Assembly (NCBI GenBank): GCA_036504895.1
Contig: DASXUJ010000022.1
Span: forward strand, 1-37,090
Direction: 5' to 3'
Source: Syntrophorhabdaceae bacterium
Lineage (GTDB): Bacteria > Desulfobacterota > Syntrophorhabdia > Syntrophorhabdales > Syntrophorhabdaceae
DNA: 37,090 bases
Shown: in pieces, positions 30,144-37,090 of the stretch
Layout: every line of letters begins with the position of its first letter
Position numbering within the stretch: position 1 is the first letter of the stretch
The notes under the pieces: generated by a model
What the model was told of the DNA's origin: nothing
Databases searched by the model: none
The model's input: the letters and a program-made list of their open reading frames with translations, nothing else
Program-made: the position numbers and the translations under genes

Positions 30144-32567
30144 CTATTTCCCTACACCCCAGATCTGTGTCGCCGTCGGGGTCGCGGGATCATCGGAAAC
30201 AAGGTTGATAACCGCTGATTTTGCGCGAACCGAGGTGGGCGTGAAGGCTGCCTGGAAGGTGCAGGTCCTGCCCGGCGCCAGGGTCCGGCCGGAACATCGG
30301 TCCTTACCTGCCACAATCGAGAACTGGTCCGCATCTCCCGTGGTCGAGGTGATCGAGAGGTCCGTGATGGTAAGGTCCGCAATGCCCTTGGTCGCGGTGT
30401 TTTTGACCGTGAATGTGGCGATTGCCGTACGGCCTGTCCTCACATTACCGAAATTCTTGTAGAGGGGAGTGACGGCCGCGGTAGGGGCGCTCGTGAAGGT
30501 GGCGGTCACCGCGATGTTACCCGTCATGGTGATGGTGCAGGTAGATTTTCCCGCGCAGGCCGACCATCCGGCAAATGCGGCTCCCGAGCCCGGGGTCGGT
30601 GTGAGGGTTACCTGCGTGCCCGGCAGATAGGAGCCGGTGCAGGGAGTTCCTACCGCGCATGTAGCCGCCTGGTAAGGTCCCATCGCCACCGTGCCCGGCC
30701 CGGTGACATTGACGGTCATCGTGTACGGGGTGGCCAGGGGTTTTATAAGCTCCGCGTTGAATACGTGGGGGGTGGTATCGGTGAGGCCCTGGCCCACGGT
30801 GCCTGCCGCGATCCTGCCGGCGGCGATACTGTACCCCCGGGATTTTGCGGCAGGAGAGTCGCCCTGGACCGCCGGGTCCACATTGGTGACGAATATGGAG
30901 ACCGTATTTTCCGCGTTGCGGACGATGTTAAAGGTACGGAACTGCTGGGGATGATCGCGCAGAGATGAGGTCTCCACCTCCCAGAATCCGAATTCAGGAC
31001 TCGGTCCGGGCTGGGGCGTGACGGTATTGATGTGGCGATGGCCCGATATCCATAGAATTACATTCGAATAATTGTGAAGCGTCTGAAGGAGCATTGCATC
31101 GGTCACTACACTATAGGGGGGCACGGGATCGTTATTCGCGATCGGGGCGCCGGGAGTCTGGCAGGGGACGCCCACAGGGGTTGAGTCGTCGTTGCATGTG
31201 GAAATAAAGAGGGGGATCACCGTGTCGTTCGGCACGTTCTGGGATTGTGCGTTCGCGGGGACCGGGGCGTCCGGGACGTTCGTCTGGGGCCCCACCGGGA
31301 TATGGGCGGCAATGATCATGAGCTTGCCCTGGGCCTGACCCAGCTCGAGCTCGTTGATGAGCCAATCATACCTCTCCTGGTCGAGACAGCCCCGTGCGTA
31401 GGAGCTATAAATGGCGTAGGGATTTTCCTTGCAGGTGTCGTCGAGAACGATAACCTTTACCGGCACGTTTGATTTAGGCTCGAAGGTGTAAGAGGCCCAG
31501 TCCCGATCGAGGTTTGCCTGGGTGAGTCCGTGGCCTTTCGGGTGTGACGTGGTATTGAAGAATTCTCTCATCCATTTTAAGGACGTGGACGTATCGGTAG
31601 AGAGGCTGCGGCGGCTCGGGTCGGCTGCTACCAGGGGCGGCGTGATGGTCCCGTCTGCTCCCGCGCCGATGATAGTCCCTAAGGGGGTGGCGCCGTCGAT
31701 GGTGCCCACGTAAAACCCGCGGGACTCAAAAGTGGGAAACCCTCCCGCGCCCACGAGTCCGATGTCGAGGATCGTGGGACCTGTGAGGATGCGCCGCACG
31801 TAGTCCGTATAAGTAAGAGTGCCCAGCCAATACTGATCGTGATTGCCGATGACCACATACCAGGGGATCGACTTGTCGAGGCCGGCCGCCTGGTAGGGCC
31901 TCTGGTAATCTATCGAGCCTGCCCCCTTGTGCGCTCCCGAGCTGGGATTGATCCGCTTCCCGTCTATGACGTCGATAAACCACCTGAGCTCGTTATACTG
32001 AGTATTGTTCGCATCATCCCCCAAAGAGATGCCGAAATCGAAGGGGGTCTGTACGTGGAGGGCATTGACCGTCTGGATCGCCGCGTCGAGGACGTGGGTG
32101 GTGGAAAGGATGACCGGTGAGTAGGCCGAGGTATTTACATTTCCGTAAGGCGCCACCGTTCCGGGATAGACGCTTTGGGCAGGTGATTCTTTATCGGTAA
32201 TATGGATGTCCGAGATGGAGAAGAAATTGAGAAGGGTTTCGACCGGGGTGCGCGCCCCTGCCGCGCCGCCATTGGGGAGAAGGGGGCCGTAATCTACGGG
32301 AGCGCCCATGGGATCGTAGCTGGTGTAGCCCTGGGCGGCGTACTGGTCGACCTCGGTTATGGTAAGCTCCTGCGCCCCGGGAATGGCGAGAGGCCTTATC
32401 GTCCGCTGAAGGGTAGTATACACATCGGAGGAGATCGGATAGGTAGGCGGCGCCCCGTATGCGGGGCACAGGAGGGTGAGAGACAGAAAGAGCAGGAAGA
32501 GGGAGACGGTGATCTTCCGCCCGGCAGATCGTGCAGCGGGACTGCAGTGCTTCAAGATGTTTTTCAT
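30144..32567 (-). CDS. Secreted metallophosphoesterase with InlB-type and ASH-like C-terminal modules
   Basis: An 807-residue exported protein. The start at 32567 has AGGGGA before it and opens a signal peptide (hydrophobic 19-34, ending AYGAP); an in-frame ATG at 32690 does not. The calcineurin-like core (about 112-600) has SDIHITD (D120, H122), GDDANN (near 184), GNHD (241-244), AAHIPVG and SGHRH, all metal ligands of phosphoesterases. It looks like the TIGR03768-type secreted family. A module with VTLTPTPGSGAAFAGW and TMTGNIAVTATF (about 625-695) is an InlB B-repeat-like domain, and the last 110 residues (NFGNVRTGRTAIATFTVKN, APGRTCTFQAAFTP) are an ASH/Hydin-like domain. Extracellular substrate unknown. 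Shares a bidirectional terminator with the pentapeptide gene. Confidence 0.9.
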   Translation of the reverse strand: MKNILKHCSPAARSAGRKITVSLFLLFLSLTLLCPAYGAPPTYPISSDVYTTLQRTIRPLAIPGAQELTITEVDQYAAQGYTSYDPMGAPVDYGPLLPNGGAAGARTPVETLLNFFSISDIHITDKESPAQSVYPGTVAPYGNVNTSAYSPVILSTTHVLDAAIQTVNALHVQTPFDFGISLGDDANNTQYNELRWFIDVIDGKRINPSSGAHKGAGSIDYQRPYQAAGLDKSIPWYVVIGNHDQYWLGTLTYTDYVRRILTGPTILDIGLVGAGGFPTFESRGFYVGTIDGATPLGTIIGAGADGTITPPLVAADPSRRSLSTDTSTSLKWMREFFNTTSHPKGHGLTQANLDRDWASYTFEPKSNVPVKVIVLDDTCKENPYAIYSSYARGCLDQERYDWLINELELGQAQGKLMIIAAHIPVGPQTNVPDAPVPANAQSQNVPNDTVIPLFISTCNDDSTPVGVPCQTPGAPIANNDPVPPYSVVTDAMLLQTLHNYSNVILWISGHRHINTVTPQPGPSPEFGFWEVETSSLRDHPQQFRTFNIVRNAENTVSIFVTNVDPAVQGDSPAAKSRGYSIAAGRIAAGTVGQGLTDTTPHVFNAELIKPLATPYTMTVNVTGPGTVAMGPYQAATCAVGTPCTGSYLPGTQVTLTPTPGSGAAFAGWSACAGKSTCTITMTGNIAVTATFTSAPTAAVTPLYKNFGNVRTGRTAIATFTVKNTATKGIADLTITDLSITSTTGDADQFSIVAGKDRCSGRTLAPGRTCTFQAAFTPTSVRAKSAVINLVSDDPATPTATQIWGVGK

Positions 32568-32860
32568 TTTTGTTCCCCTATGTCTTGTTAACATCGTCTT
32601 GATTCCTCCGGAGATATTTTTGTGCAGTTGAGGAGCCGCAAGGAAGAAGACGGCGGCTTTTTCCAGCCCCATGCGGCGGCACCGCTGCACTCTATTTGAT
32701 TATCGAATCTCGTGATTATTTCTTAATCGGATGAAGGCGTCCTTGCGGCAATCGACGAAAATATGTATGATAGCCGATCGAGACCAGCAGTGCCGTACAT
32801 ACGGGGATGGACCAAATATATGAACGGTATTAATAGAAAAGAGCGAGAGGAGTAAATTTT
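32568..32860. promoter_or_regulatory. Divergent intergenic region with weak plus-strand promoter
   Basis: The region separates two secreted-protein genes. On the plus strand TTGCGG (32743-32748), 17 bases, TATGAT (32766-32771) may serve the carboxylesterase (leader about 83 nt); the -35 is poor. A short stem (AGCCGC/GCGGCT near 32635-32660) lies in the phosphoesterase leader. No riboswitch was recognised. Confidence 0.35.
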
Positions 32861-34486
32861 ATGGACAGGAAAATGTCGATCTTTATGACTTTGGTGCTAT
32901 GGGTCATAACCATGCTCCTTTTTTGTGCTGAAACTCTCGGTGCCCAGACCGGTCCCGACCCTGCCGTGGTACGGACGGATAAAGGCCTGGTCCGCGGCCT
33001 CATCCACGAGGGGGTGCGGGAATTCAAAGGTATACCTTACGCCCGGCCTCCGGTAGGCGAGCTGAGGTGGAGTACGCCAAAGGACGCCACTGCCTGGACC
33101 GGCATCCTCGACGCCACAAAATATAAAAATGCCTGTCCCCAGCTCAAGCGGTACGGGATCCCCGAAGCGAGTTATAACGAAGATTGCCTCCATCTCAACG
33201 TGACCGTCCCTTATTCCGGCAAGGCGGACCTCGACCGCCGCCGGGCGGTGATCGTCTGGCTTCACGGCGGCGCCTTTGTGGGCGGATCGAGCGCGCTCTA
33301 CCCCCTCGATTACATGGCGAAATCGGGCGACGTGGTCGTGGTATCGATGAACTACCGGCTCGGTATATTCGGCTTCACCGCCCATCCCTCGTTCGGATCG
33401 GATCATAACGGCGGGTACGGCCTCGAGGACCAGCGCGCCGCCCTGAGGTGGGTAAAGAAGAATATCGAGGTTTTCGGGGGAGATCCGGAGAATATTACCA
33501 TTGCCGGAGAGTCCGCCGGTGCGGCGGGCGTATGCATGCACATCCTGGCGCCCGATGAGACGACCGGGCTTTTCCATAAGGCCATCATCCAGAGCGCCGG
33601 CTGCGTCACCCCTCTTCCCACTCTGGAGGAGGGAAAGAAGATCGGCCGGAAGGCTGCATCCCTGGTAGGGTGTGGCGACGAAAAGACGGCGCTCGCGTGC
33701 CTCAGGAAGAAGCCGGTAAAGGATCTCCTCGACGCGGCGTCAACCGTCGCAGGTTCGAGCATCGTGACCTTTATGCCCGTCACCGGGACCAGGACCGTCC
33801 CAATGCCCGGGGCCAGGGCGATCCCGGCGGGCAAATTCGTCCACGTGCCCGTATTGAGCGGCGGCACCAGGGACGAGCTCCGGCTCTACGTGGCCTACGC
33901 GGTCCAGGCCGGGCAATCCGTCACCAGGGACAATTATGCAGACCTTTTGAAACAGACCTACGGCGCCCACACCGACGCGGTGGCGCAGGAATATCCGCCC
34001 GGCGCCTTCACTTCGGCAGCCTCCGCCCTGGGCACGGTCTGGTCCGATTTCCGGCCCGATGTGGGGATCAATAACTGTATTTATCTCGAGACGGCCAAAT
34101 TACTCAGGGAATCGGTCCCGGTGTATCAGTTCGTCTTTTCCGACCGGAATGCGCCGCCGGTCGCCCCTGATCCCGGGTTCGAAATGGGTGCGGTCCACTC
34201 ATCGGAACTGCCCTACCAGTTCCCCCACTTCGACAATACGAGCAATCTCGCGGGTCCGGACCTCCCGGCGCCATCACAAAAACTCGCGGTTCAAATGATG
34301 GCATACTGGACGAGCTTCGCGAAAACAGGCAGACCGGCTGCCCCTGATTCGCCCGGGTGGGAAGTTTTCAATGCCGATAATAAGGTCATGAATCTGGAGC
34401 CGGGCAAGGTCGGCTATTTCAATGCCGGTGCAGCCCACCACTGCGGCTTCTGGAAGACCCTCTATCCGGATATCCTGACGAAGTAA
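32861..34486 (+). CDS. Secreted type B carboxylesterase
   Basis: A 541-residue exported serine esterase. Signal peptide 1-28 (ending TLGAQ). Family hallmarks are all present: FKGIPYARPPVGELRW (55-70), EDCLHLNV (107-114), oxyanion HGGAF (135-139), nucleophile GESAGA with S218, acid E339 in GGTRDELRLY and H446 in GAVHSSELPYQF. It hydrolyses carboxylic esters, perhaps aromatic or phthalate-type ones as in many relatives, but the substrate is unknown. GAGAGGAG lies before the ATG. It is a single gene, divergent from the metallophosphoesterase and 170 bases ahead of the binding-protein genes. Confidence 0.95.
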   Translation: MDRKMSIFMTLVLWVITMLLFCAETLGAQTGPDPAVVRTDKGLVRGLIHEGVREFKGIPYARPPVGELRWSTPKDATAWTGILDATKYKNACPQLKRYGIPEASYNEDCLHLNVTVPYSGKADLDRRRAVIVWLHGGAFVGGSSALYPLDYMAKSGDVVVVSMNYRLGIFGFTAHPSFGSDHNGGYGLEDQRAALRWVKKNIEVFGGDPENITIAGESAGAAGVCMHILAPDETTGLFHKAIIQSAGCVTPLPTLEEGKKIGRKAASLVGCGDEKTALACLRKKPVKDLLDAASTVAGSSIVTFMPVTGTRTVPMPGARAIPAGKFVHVPVLSGGTRDELRLYVAYAVQAGQSVTRDNYADLLKQTYGAHTDAVAQEYPPGAFTSAASALGTVWSDFRPDVGINNCIYLETAKLLRESVPVYQFVFSDRNAPPVAPDPGFEMGAVHSSELPYQFPHFDNTSNLAGPDLPAPSQKLAVQMMAYWTSFAKTGRPAAPDSPGWEVFNADNKVMNLEPGKVGYFNAGAAHHCGFWKTLYPDILTK

Positions 34487-34681: not shown

Positions 34682-35704
34682 ATGATAATGAAGAAGTCCG
34701 GCCTTTTTGCACTGACAGCTCTCATTCCGGCGTTCATGAGCACCCTCCTGATCGCCCTTTCCGGGTGTGCCCCTCCGGCAGGCCGAGATGAAATCAAGCT
34801 TGCCGCTATCTCCGCGAACGTTATGGGCCTCTTCTTCGTTGCCGATGGTCGTCGCCTTTTCGAGAAAAACGGTCTTTCGCCTGCACTGAAGGTCTATCAG
34901 TCGGGGCCCCTCGGCCTGAAGCATCTCGAAGAAGGTACGGCGGACGTGGCGACGGCTGCTGATTTCGCGTTCGTGGCACATAGCTTCAAAGCCTCGAATC
35001 TGCGCGTAATAGGTGCTATCGGTAAGGGCGGGGGCATGCAGATTATCGCGAGGCGGGGCAGGGGCATTGCGAAACCGGCCGATCTCCAGGGTAAAACGGT
35101 AGCCGTCCCGAAGGGCACCGTCGCCCAATTCTTTCTGGGCGCCTATTTGCAGCGCAACGGCATCCCCTATCAGAAGGTCCGGGCGGTCTATCTCCCTCCC
35201 GCCGAAGTGGTGGAGGCCATGAGGAAAGGCACGGCAACGGCCGCCTGTGTCTGGTCCCCTTATATAGAGGAGATCAGGGATATACTCGGGAAAGAAGCGG
35301 TCTTCCTTCAATCTCACGGCCGGACCGATTACTACGCTCTTCTGGTGACACGGGACGACGTCATCAGGGAAAGGCCCGCGGTCCTCGAGAAGCTCCTGAA
35401 GGCAATGAGCGATGCGGAGGCGTTTACGAAGGCCCATCCGGAAGAAGCGATGGGGATTATCGCAAAGGCGACGGGCCTGACGATGGACCAGGTGCGCAGG
35501 GGTTGGTCCGAAAATAAGTATGAAGTAAGAATGGACCAGGGACTCCTCGCACTTATGGAAGCCGAGGCGCATTGGATGATCAGGAACAATCTGACCTCGA
35601 AGCGGAAGATGCCGAACTTTCTCGATTTGATCGACGTAAGGGCAATGAAAGCGGTGAAGCCCGAAGCAATAGGGATCATTCACCGGGAGAGCGATCGCCA
35701 TTAA
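34682..35704 (+). CDS. SsuA/NMT1-like solute-binding lipoprotein
   Basis: A 340-residue periplasmic binding protein of the nitrate/sulfonate/thiamine-precursor type (NMT1/THI5-like). A lipobox LSGC puts the lipid-modified cysteine at 29. The body has the two-lobe pattern: LFFVADGRRLFEKNGL, then TADVATAADFAFVAHSF, PADLQGKTVAVPKGTVAQFFL, and YLPPAEVVEAMRKGTATAACVWSPY. The likely start is ATG 34682 or 34688; a TTG at 34661 is possible but would spoil the signal. No Shine-Dalgarno is clear. No permease or ATPase follows; instead a paralogue and then a membrane signalling protein. Ligand unknown. Confidence 0.87.
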   Translation: MIMKKSGLFALTALIPAFMSTLLIALSGCAPPAGRDEIKLAAISANVMGLFFVADGRRLFEKNGLSPALKVYQSGPLGLKHLEEGTADVATAADFAFVAHSFKASNLRVIGAIGKGGGMQIIARRGRGIAKPADLQGKTVAVPKGTVAQFFLGAYLQRNGIPYQKVRAVYLPPAEVVEAMRKGTATAACVWSPYIEEIRDILGKEAVFLQSHGRTDYYALLVTRDDVIRERPAVLEKLLKAMSDAEAFTKAHPEEAMGIIAKATGLTMDQVRRGWSENKYEVRMDQGLLALMEAEAHWMIRNNLTSKRKMPNFLDLIDVRAMKAVKPEAIGIIHRESDRH

Positions 35705-35731
35705 AAGAAGGAGTGACGGAGGGATCGAATA

Positions 35732-36721
35732 TTGAAAAAGGGCATATTCACCCGGACCGGTACGGCGGCAGTTGTCTGCGGGCTGCTTCTTTTCGTGATC
35801 TTGACGGGTAATCCGGGGGCGGAGCCTCTTAGGGTCGGCGTTGCCATGGACATTAAGACCGCCCTCGTTCGTATCGCGCATGGACAAGGATTTTTCAAGA
35901 AGCAGGGTATCGATGTAGTGCTCAAGGAATACGAGTCAGGGGCTATGGCAATCGACGATCTGACGGCGGATAAGCTCGATTGGCTGACTGCCGCGGAATT
36001 CGTCTTTGTGGTGCAGAATGCCAGGCATCGCGATTTGAGAATGGCGGCCACCATCGGCATGGCAGCGGACATTGAGCTGATGATACGAAAAGATCACGCG
36101 ATCGCCCGTCCTGCGGACCTGAAAGGGAAGCGGGTCGCCATCAACCGGGGCAGCATGCCTGAGTTCTTTTTCTATACCTACCTCATCTATAATCGCATTC
36201 CCATTGGTAGCGTGCGGATCGTCAACCTTGCCCCTTCGGAAATGGTGAAACAGATGAGACAGGGAACGATCGACGCGGCGGTCTGCTGGCCGCCTTATAC
36301 CACAACGATGGTGAAGCAACTGGGCCCGAAGGTTGCGCGCTGGCCGGTACAGGGCGGGCAGGAATATTATTTTACCCTCATTGCAAAGGAAGGATTTCTC
36401 AAGAAGGAGCCGAAACGGACCGAGCGGTTCATGGCCGCCCTCGCAGAAGCCGAGAGTTTTCTGTTGAAGTATCCGGATAAAGCCAAAGCCGTCCTGCGCG
36501 ATATTTTAAAGCAAGACGCGGAGGGGTTCCTCGAAAACTGGTCCCGCACGTTCTTTCAGCTCCAGTTGACTCAGGACCTGCTCGTTCTCATGGAGCGAGA
36601 GGCAAAGTGGGCGATGCGCAACAACCTGCTCGAAAAAGGAGAGATACCTAATTATCTCGATTTTATCTATTTCGACGCCCTGGATAAAGTGAAACCCCAG
36701 GCGGTGAGCATTGTCCATTAG
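35732..36721 (+). CDS. Second SsuA/NMT1-like solute-binding protein, TTG start
   Basis: A 329-residue exported paralogue of the preceding gene. The start is TTG at 35732, set by GGAGGGA seven bases upstream; no ATG is near. The signal peptide (1-30) ends near NPGAEP and lacks a lipobox, so this one should be soluble in the periplasm. Matching blocks are IAHGQGFFKKQGIDVVLKEY, LDWLTAAEFVFVVQ, PADLKGKRVAINRGSMPEFF, LAPSEMVKQMRQGTIDAAVC, and the shared C-terminus MRNNLLEKGEIPNYLDFIY. The gap to the first gene is 27 bases, so they are one operon. A likely sensor gene follows 31 bases later. Ligand unknown. Confidence 0.88.
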   Translation: MKKGIFTRTGTAAVVCGLLLFVILTGNPGAEPLRVGVAMDIKTALVRIAHGQGFFKKQGIDVVLKEYESGAMAIDDLTADKLDWLTAAEFVFVVQNARHRDLRMAATIGMAADIELMIRKDHAIARPADLKGKRVAINRGSMPEFFFYTYLIYNRIPIGSVRIVNLAPSEMVKQMRQGTIDAAVCWPPYTTTMVKQLGPKVARWPVQGGQEYYFTLIAKEGFLKKEPKRTERFMAALAEAESFLLKYPDKAKAVLRDILKQDAEGFLENWSRTFFQLQLTQDLLVLMEREAKWAMRNNLLEKGEIPNYLDFIYFDALDKVKPQAVSIVH

Positions 36722-36752
36722 GAGAATTTCCTTTTTTCACCCCCTGACAGCC

Positions 36753-37090
36753 ATGTCGGTCAGGGCAAAGCTCCGGCTCAGTGCTGCGATCACCGTAGGC
36801 CTTGCCCTGCTCGTGGCGCTTACCGTCTCTTTACAATACAAAAATATCGGTCAGGCTTCGCGGACGGAGCGCTTTGCCCATGAGATGGTCAAGAATGTGT
36901 CTGACCTCAATTCTCTGGGATATACGTATCTTTTGCTCCAAAACAAACGCCCCCAGGCGCAATGGCAGATCAAACACGGCACGTTGGGAAGGCTCCTCTC
37001 GGAATATACGGTGAGGGACCCCAATGAAGAGCTGATCATGGCGAGGCTGCGCTCCAACCTGGAACAGGTAAAAAGTCTCTTTGACATATT
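36753..37090 (+). CDS. N-terminus of a membrane signalling protein, probably a sensor kinase (partial)
   Basis: An open frame of 112 codons from ATG 36753 runs off the window without a stop. It starts with a basic segment and one membrane helix (RLSAAITVGLALLVALTVSL, about 8-27), then a periplasmic helical stretch (TERFAHEMVKNVSDLNSLGY, TVRDPNEELIMARLRSNLEQ) of the four-helix type that heads many histidine kinases and chemoreceptors. Kinase or receptor domains would lie beyond the edge. No Shine-Dalgarno precedes the ATG. It follows the two binding-protein genes after 31 bases, so it is probably in the same operon and may sense their loaded forms. The kinase call is inference. Confidence 0.65.
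   Translation, partial: MSVRAKLRLSAAITVGLALLVALTVSLQYKNIGQASRTERFAHEMVKNVSDLNSLGYTYLLLQNKRPQAQWQIKHGTLGRLLSEYTVRDPNEELIMARLRSNLEQVKSLFDI

What the first reader, a model, noticed from the sequence alone, without database searches (positions are those of the whole stretch)
34682..37090. Two binding proteins and a membrane sensor with no transporter: possible periplasmic sensing system
Two paralogous SsuA/NMT1-like proteins, one with a lipobox and one without, lie 27 bases apart. The next gene, 31 bases on, starts with one membrane helix and a helical periplasmic stretch as in sensor kinases. A transporter would need a permease and an ATPase, and neither is between or before them. This fits a three-part sensor in which soluble and lipid-anchored binding proteins report a ligand to a kinase, as LuxP-LuxQ or TorT-TorS do. 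The duplicated proteins share the C-terminal MRNNL...NFLD/NYLD block, which may be the contact surface.
Basis: partly seen in the sequence, partly recalled or inferred. Interest (0 to 1): 0.68.

Follow-up and report, generated by a model that had tools for sequence, protein, structure and literature searches.

The report
Binding proteins wired to membrane sensors
Two proteins that look like the bait-catching part of a nutrient importer sit, with no importer, directly beside a membrane sensor kinase; the same pairing recurs in well over a hundred loci from several bacterial phyla, so these binding proteins most likely report a still unknown chemical outside the cell to many kinds of signalling enzymes.

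Summary
Two NMT1/SsuA-fold binding proteins (SBPs) lie 27 bp apart, followed 31 bp on by a gene cut off by the contig end. I found the rest of that gene on contig C39, which joins by an exact, in-frame 11-base overlap. It encodes a 653-aa HAMP-PAS-HisKA-HATPase kinase, followed by a receiver protein and a hybrid kinase. Neither contig carries an ABC permease.

The pairing is a conserved system. In 80 loci from the genome collection, the gene after the SBP encodes the same membrane sensor domain in 76; 2 loci end at contig edges and 2 lack it. Within the phylum, 46 of 58 SBPs are followed by the sensor and 8 by another SBP. None of these loci has a detectable permease. The sensor domain is absent from Pfam, is predicted to be a four-helix bundle, and is joined to various kinases, GGDEF/EAL, HD-GYP or MCP outputs. 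The SBPs form a clade apart from transporter-linked NMT1 SBPs, with their own conserved C-terminal block.

Nearest precedents: XylFII-LytS, TorT-TorS, AioX-AioS, NspS-MbaA. The ligand is unknown and SBP-receptor contact is inferred. Verdict: new variant of a known kind.

The parts
34682..35704 (+). SBP1: NMT1/SsuA-fold solute-binding lipoprotein (338 aa from ATG 34688), lipobox Cys codon about 34766-34768
   Evidence: orthologue of the (frameshifted) first SBP in L077, 46% over 200 aa, tree support 100/98
35573..35683 (+). SBP1 C-terminal block (W-MIRNNL...PNFLD...VKPEAIGIIH), conserved in sensor-linked SBPs
35732..36721 (+). SBP2: NMT1/SsuA-fold solute-binding protein (329 aa), TTG start, signal-like N-terminus, no lipobox
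   Evidence: 58-63% to SBPs of L077 and L073; AlphaFold2 pLDDT 93.9; best fold matches TauA and SsuA
36608..36718 (+). SBP2 C-terminal block (WAMRNNL...PNYLDFIY...VKPQAVSIVH)
36753..37090 (+). Gene 3, first 109 of 653 aa: TM1 and first half of the periplasmic four-helix sensor domain; continues at bases 1-1632 of contig C39 (L126) with second half of sensor, TM2, HAMP, PAS, HisKA, HATPase_c
   Evidence: exact 11-base overlap TTTGACATATT, in frame; 51-53% collinear with L073/L077 kinases across the join

Best explanation
This is a binding-protein-dependent sensory system. Shown by sequence: two NMT1/SsuA-fold SBPs (one lipid-anchored, one without lipobox) are encoded directly before a membrane histidine kinase with an uncatalogued periplasmic domain, then a single-domain receiver and a receiver-kinase-receiver hybrid, with no transporter genes. 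Inferred: the SBPs bind an extracytoplasmic solute; the loaded and/or empty SBP docks on the four-helix periplasmic domain; helix movement passes through TM2 and HAMP to the kinase, which phosphorylates the adjacent receiver and/or hybrid kinase. Elsewhere the same SBP-plus-sensor input drives other outputs: GGDEF/EAL, HD-GYP, MCP and other kinase classes. The SBPs have probably left transport.
For: Full gene 3 recovered: exact 11-base in-frame overlap C22/C39, collinear with homologues across the join. Kinase, receiver and hybrid domains. No PF00528 permease on C22, C39, C8 or C70, while two other NMT1 SBPs of this genome (C75, C104) do have one beside them. Linkage: sensor-domain gene next in 76 of 80 genome-contig loci (2 contig edges, 2 exceptions); in the phylum survey 46 of 58 SBPs followed by sensor, 8 by another SBP, 1 edge, 3 other. 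Reverse: 25 of 26 strong sensor loci had the SBP directly before the sensor, the other being a contig-edge fragment. No permease found by the local scan near any of them. SBPs form a clade apart from transporter-linked NMT1 SBPs (99/99), with bimodal scores 200-490 vs 40-96 and a C-terminal block that controls lack. Receptor domain: AlphaFold2 four-helix bundle, pLDDT 86, resembling McpS, XylFII-bound LytS, NarQ, TorS. Varied outputs on one input.
Against: No binding or phosphotransfer data. The ligand is unknown. Helical bundles match one another widely, so the fold match alone is weak. The four-helix domain could bind a ligand itself, as NarX or Tar do. A few family SBPs lack a neighbouring sensor (L086, L088, L093, L170, L244). 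No DNA-binding regulator is encoded in the operon, so the final output is unknown.
Confidence: 0.83

Rival explanations
1. The SBPs belong to an ABC importer whose permease and ATPase are encoded elsewhere, and the adjacent kinase merely regulates uptake.
For: NMT1/SsuA SBPs normally serve importers; this genome has 12 PF00528 hits on other contigs.
Against: The permeases at C75 and C104 have their own NMT1 SBPs. None of the surveyed loci has a permease nearby. The SBPs form a separate clade with a distinct C-terminal block. The same SBPs also pair with GGDEF/EAL, HD-GYP and MCP outputs.
Confidence: 0.08
2. The four-helix domain senses a small ligand by itself (NarX/Tar-like), and the SBPs only scavenge or buffer that ligand.
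For: Whole-length fold similarity to NarQ (Z about 14, 212 aligned); conserved W71, E130, R134 and Q138 (numbering of L191) could form a small pocket.
Against: The near-obligate one-to-one gene pairing in both directions is more than a scavenger would need; SBP-bound LytS is as good a fold match (Z 16.2).
Confidence: 0.09

Closest known systems
XylFII-LytS (xylose sensing, Clostridium beijerinckii)
   Same: SBP bound by a four-helix-bundle histidine-kinase sensor domain; the bound LytS domain (5xsj_L) superposes on the predicted sensor domain, Z 16.2, 1.8 A over 121 residues; XylFII docks on helices H3 and H4 (PMC9769921)
   Different: XylFII is a sugar SBP of another SBP class (own knowledge); different kinase type; ligand here unknown
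TorT-TorS (TMAO)
   Same: SBP plus all-helical kinase sensor; 3i9y matches with Z 13.4
   Different: TorS sensor is larger (229 residues in 3i9y); gene 3 is far below the TorS family cut-off (138 vs 676.5) and the match is in the kinase core; TorT is not an NMT1 protein (own knowledge)
AioX-AioS-AioR (arsenite)
   Same: A subfamily of transporter-type SBPs turned to sensing, encoded beside a kinase and receiver (PMC5908839)
   Different: AioX is of the phosphonate-binding (PhnD) type; system tied to arsenic metabolism; response regulator acts on DNA, whereas here a lone receiver and a hybrid kinase follow
NspS-MbaA (polyamines, Vibrio cholerae)
   Same: SBP paired with a membrane c-di-GMP enzyme (PMC8967002), like the GGDEF/EAL members found here
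   Different: NspS is of another SBP family (own knowledge); c-di-GMP output only
LuxP-LuxQ (AI-2)
   Same: SBP plus kinase
   Different: LuxQ periplasmic part is of tandem PAS-like type (PMC8534201); here all-helical; below LuxQ cut-off (95.5 vs 1200)
SsuA/TauA sulfonate-binding proteins
   Same: Fold: TauA Z 30.9 over 278 residues
   Different: No permease or ATPase; below NCBIfam SsuA cut-off (117.5 and 117.8 vs 163.5); own C-terminal block

Membership tests
NMT1/THI5-like SBP superfamily (PF09084) | Pfam score above gathering cut-off | tested here: met
   79.6 and 82.6 bits vs 20.5
SsuA aliphatic-sulfonate SBP (TIGR01728) | score above curated cut-off | tested here: not met
   117.5 and 117.8 vs 163.5 bits
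ABC importer | permease and ATPase genes beside the SBP | tested here: not met
   no PF00528 hit on C22 or C39; next genes are kinase, receiver, hybrid kinase, glyoxalase-like; none in survey loci
SBP-dependent receptor systems (functional kind) | SBP gene paired with a transmembrane receptor with periplasmic domain and cytoplasmic output | tested here: met
SBP-dependent receptor systems (functional kind) | physical, ligand-dependent SBP-receptor interaction | not testable with these tools
   needs biochemistry or a two-chain model
LuxPQ | LuxQ family score above cut-off | tested here: not met
   95.5 vs 1200 bits, PAS and kinase part only
LuxPQ | PAS-like periplasmic domain | tested here: not met
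   model of a family sensor domain is all helix
TorTS | TorS family score above cut-off | tested here: not met
   138 vs 676.5 bits
XylFII-LytS | four-helix-bundle sensor of LytS type | tested here: inconclusive
   Z 16.2, but helical bundles match widely and no clear sequence match outside TM2/HAMP
Known Pfam sensor domain (4HB_MCP, HBM, NIT and others) | Pfam match of the periplasmic part | tested here: not met
   54 of 54 sensor domains match only HAMP consistently

The most novel reading that the evidence does not exclude
A large unrecognised receptor family: a subgroup of NMT1-fold binding proteins that has left transport, obligately paired with an uncatalogued four-helix periplasmic domain, forms one interchangeable input module attached to histidine kinases of several classes, c-di-GMP enzymes, HD-GYP and chemotaxis outputs across Desulfobacterota, Nitrospirota, Pseudomonadota and Acidobacteriota. 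Several SBPs per receptor may let one kinase read several solutes.
Probability: 0.65. Interest if true: 0.66.

Novelty: new variant of a known kind. Interest (0 to 1): 0.56.

Why it matters
Only about ten sensor kinases are known to be switched by a binding protein (PMC9602780). These SBPs score as NMT1/SsuA-type ABC-transporter binding proteins, so sequence-based annotation would call them importer parts and their receptors 'sensor kinases' of unknown input. Recognising the pair gives one testable rule for the input of a broad set of environmental kinases and c-di-GMP enzymes, and offers cultured non-pathogens (Methylomonas, Geomonas, Geotalea, Andreprevotia) in which to find the ligand.

Tried and rejected
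G037:C138 (L013) gave only a 43-residue hit in an unrelated neighbourhood and was dropped. Plasmid search gave only distant transporter SBPs at or below 28% identity. First permease seeds were poor and were replaced; two of the second set still caught ABC ATPases, so ATPase-type hits were read as such. An ABC-transporter reading was considered first and rejected. LuxPQ and TorTS membership rejected. Literature terms NMT1 with histidine kinase or diguanylate cyclase found no description of such a pair in the held library; the main review on SBPs in signalling (PMC8050422) is not held, so priority cannot be settled. The 'contact surface' idea could only be tested as specificity of the block, not as an interface.

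Full report
What is there. The window is the whole contig C22 of a 4.35 Mb genome in 138 contigs. At its right end lie two NMT1-type binding proteins, SBP1 (ATG 34682/34688 to 35704, lipobox) and SBP2 (35732-36721, no lipobox), 27 bp apart and 33% identical, and a third gene from ATG 36753 that runs off the contig.

The missing end. A search of the same genome with the second half of a homologous sensor domain gave contig C39 at its very first bases (54% identity, open frame of 544 aa). C22 ends and C39 begins with the same 11 bases (TTTGACATATT), in frame. The joined protein has 653 aa without stops and aligns collinearly across the join with the kinases of L073 and L077 (51-53%). Domains: TM, periplasmic part, TM, HAMP, PAS, HisKA, HATPase_c. 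Behind it come a single receiver protein and a receiver-HisKA-HATPase-receiver hybrid, then a glyoxalase-like gene and a helicase on the other strand. The same order, SBP(s)-kinase-receiver-hybrid, is in L011 (three SBPs; receiver 75% identical) and, with lower similarity, in L014. No PF00528 permease lies on C22 or C39; the genome has 12 elsewhere, and two other NMT1 SBPs (C75, C104) do sit beside one.

A conserved pairing. The profile of these SBPs found 28 of 395 genomes of the phylum. In 46 fetched loci holding 58 family SBPs, the next gene carries the same sensor domain for 46, another SBP for 8, a contig edge for 1 and something else for 3. An independent scan of genome contigs kept 80 loci from records labelled Desulfobacterota/Deltaproteobacteria, Nitrospirae, Beta- and Gammaproteobacteria, Magnetococcales and Acidobacteria/Holophagaceae: the sensor follows in 76, 2 end at the contig edge, 2 lack it. 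The two surveys share some genomes, so they are not fully independent. In reverse, a search with the sensor-domain profile gave 26 fetched loci with strong sensor hits; 25 have the family SBP directly before the sensor and one (L267) is a contig-edge fragment, while four weak hits are other HAMP receptors. No permease was found near any family locus by a local seed scan that does find permeases beside control NMT1 SBPs; that scan is weaker than a Pfam scan.

The SBPs are a distinct clade. Scores against the family profile are bimodal: members about 200-490 bits, other NMT1 SBPs of related genomes 40-96. In a maximum-likelihood tree the 60 family rows separate from 7 transporter-linked controls (99/99; control branches are long). 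SBP1 groups with the first SBP of L077 (100/98) and SBP2 with the second SBP of L077 and with L073 (100/100), so the two-SBP arrangement is older than the split of these lineages. Family members align to the end of the profile (340-342 of 342), whereas all 26 control SBPs stop by position 283, and profile matches to solved SBPs also mostly stop before it. It is thus a mark of sensor-linked SBPs. SBP2 is predicted with confidence (pLDDT 93.9) and is closest in fold to TauA and SsuA (Z 30.9 and 30.5). That gives no ligand, because NrtA, CmpA and Thi5 share the fold.

The receptor domain. Fifty-four sensor domains scanned one by one match only HAMP consistently in Pfam; a profile search of PDB sequences finds clear relatives only for TM2/HAMP. 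AlphaFold2 gives a four-helix bundle flanked by TM helices and HAMP (pLDDT 86; the model is of the L191 family member, since the window holds only half of the domain). VIA-align ranks McpS, XylFII-bound LytS (Z 16.2, 1.8 A over 121 residues), NarQ (whole length) and TorS among the best. For helical bundles such Z values are suggestive only. The most conserved positions (W71, E130, R134, L135, Q138) lie in the early parts of helices 2 and 4, which I infer to be the membrane-distal part; in XylFII-LytS the SBP docks on helices 3 and 4 (PMC9769921).

One input, many outputs. Downstream halves include HisKA, HisKA_2/HWE and HisKA_3 kinases with or without receivers, PAS-only proteins, GGDEF and EAL (13 and 7 of 73), HD-GYP (L081) and one MCP. 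Gene 3 itself looks recombined: its sensor half is closest to L073/L077, whose kinases are HisKA_3-type (detected in L073; masked in L077), while its kinase core is closest (66%) to L011, whose sensor is only 35% identical. This modularity argues that SBP and sensor domain form the functional input unit.

Mechanism (inferred). Ligand binds SBP; SBP docks on the bundle; helix movement passes to HAMP and kinase; phosphate goes to the lone receiver and/or the hybrid. A lipid-anchored and a non-lipidated SBP on one receptor could give two affinities or two ligands; no data distinguish these. No DNA-binding regulator is encoded nearby, so the final target is unknown.

Relation to the known. SBP-switched receptors are an established kind: about ten sensor kinases, and SBPs of at least 13 families act on receptor domains (PMC9602780). 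Kinases activated by SBPs are often encoded next to the SBP gene (PMC11113362). AioX shows the same path from a transporter SBP family into sensing (PMC5908839). What differs here is the NMT1 family, the dedicated uncatalogued receptor domain, the spread across phyla and output types, and the frequent presence of two or three SBPs. I found no description in the held library, but the main review is not held, hence 'new variant of a known kind'.

Taxon. The same-genus genome G002 shares contig length 41,235 and locus with PNOM01000018.1 ('Syntrophus sp. isolate SW.010'), and family members G030 and G036 match DBQU01000068.1 and LVAA01000023.1 (Deltaproteobacteria/Syntrophobacterales labels). The window thus comes from an anaerobic Desulfobacterota relative (inference).

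Noticed in passing
L126 (own contig C39) 1-3641 and window 36753-37090: Gene 3 appears to be a recombinant: sensor half like L073/L077, kinase core and following receiver like L011 (66% and 75%).
   Followed up: partly
L077:6870-7870: The first SBP of the orthologous two-SBP operon is broken by a frameshift, while SBP2 and the kinase are intact apart from a masked stretch of N; pseudogene or assembly error.
   Followed up: no
L211:5354-8716: A 1121-aa frame with a weak SBP-like domain (52.6 bits) and a histidine kinase, perhaps a fused version, next to a normal SBP-sensor pair.
   Followed up: no
L089:387-5525: Two sensor-domain genes in a row behind one SBP.
   Followed up: no
L140-L156: A conserved group of NMT1 SBPs (score about 50 on the family profile) with mostly no permease or kinase detected within 1.5 kb in many relatives; role unclear.
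   Followed up: no
L237 (JABHRR010000048.1): An SBP-sensor-kinase pair in a bin labelled Woesearchaeota archaeon; probably bacterial contamination of the bin.
   Followed up: no
L170, L244, L088, L093: Family SBPs without a neighbouring sensor gene (one in Polaromonas sp. P2-4); they may work with a receptor encoded elsewhere.
   Followed up: partly
window 30144-32690 (-) and 32861-34486 (+): Upstream of the SBPs: a large exported protein with InlB-like and Ig-like repeats, and a carboxylesterase; no obvious link to the sensor.
   Followed up: partly
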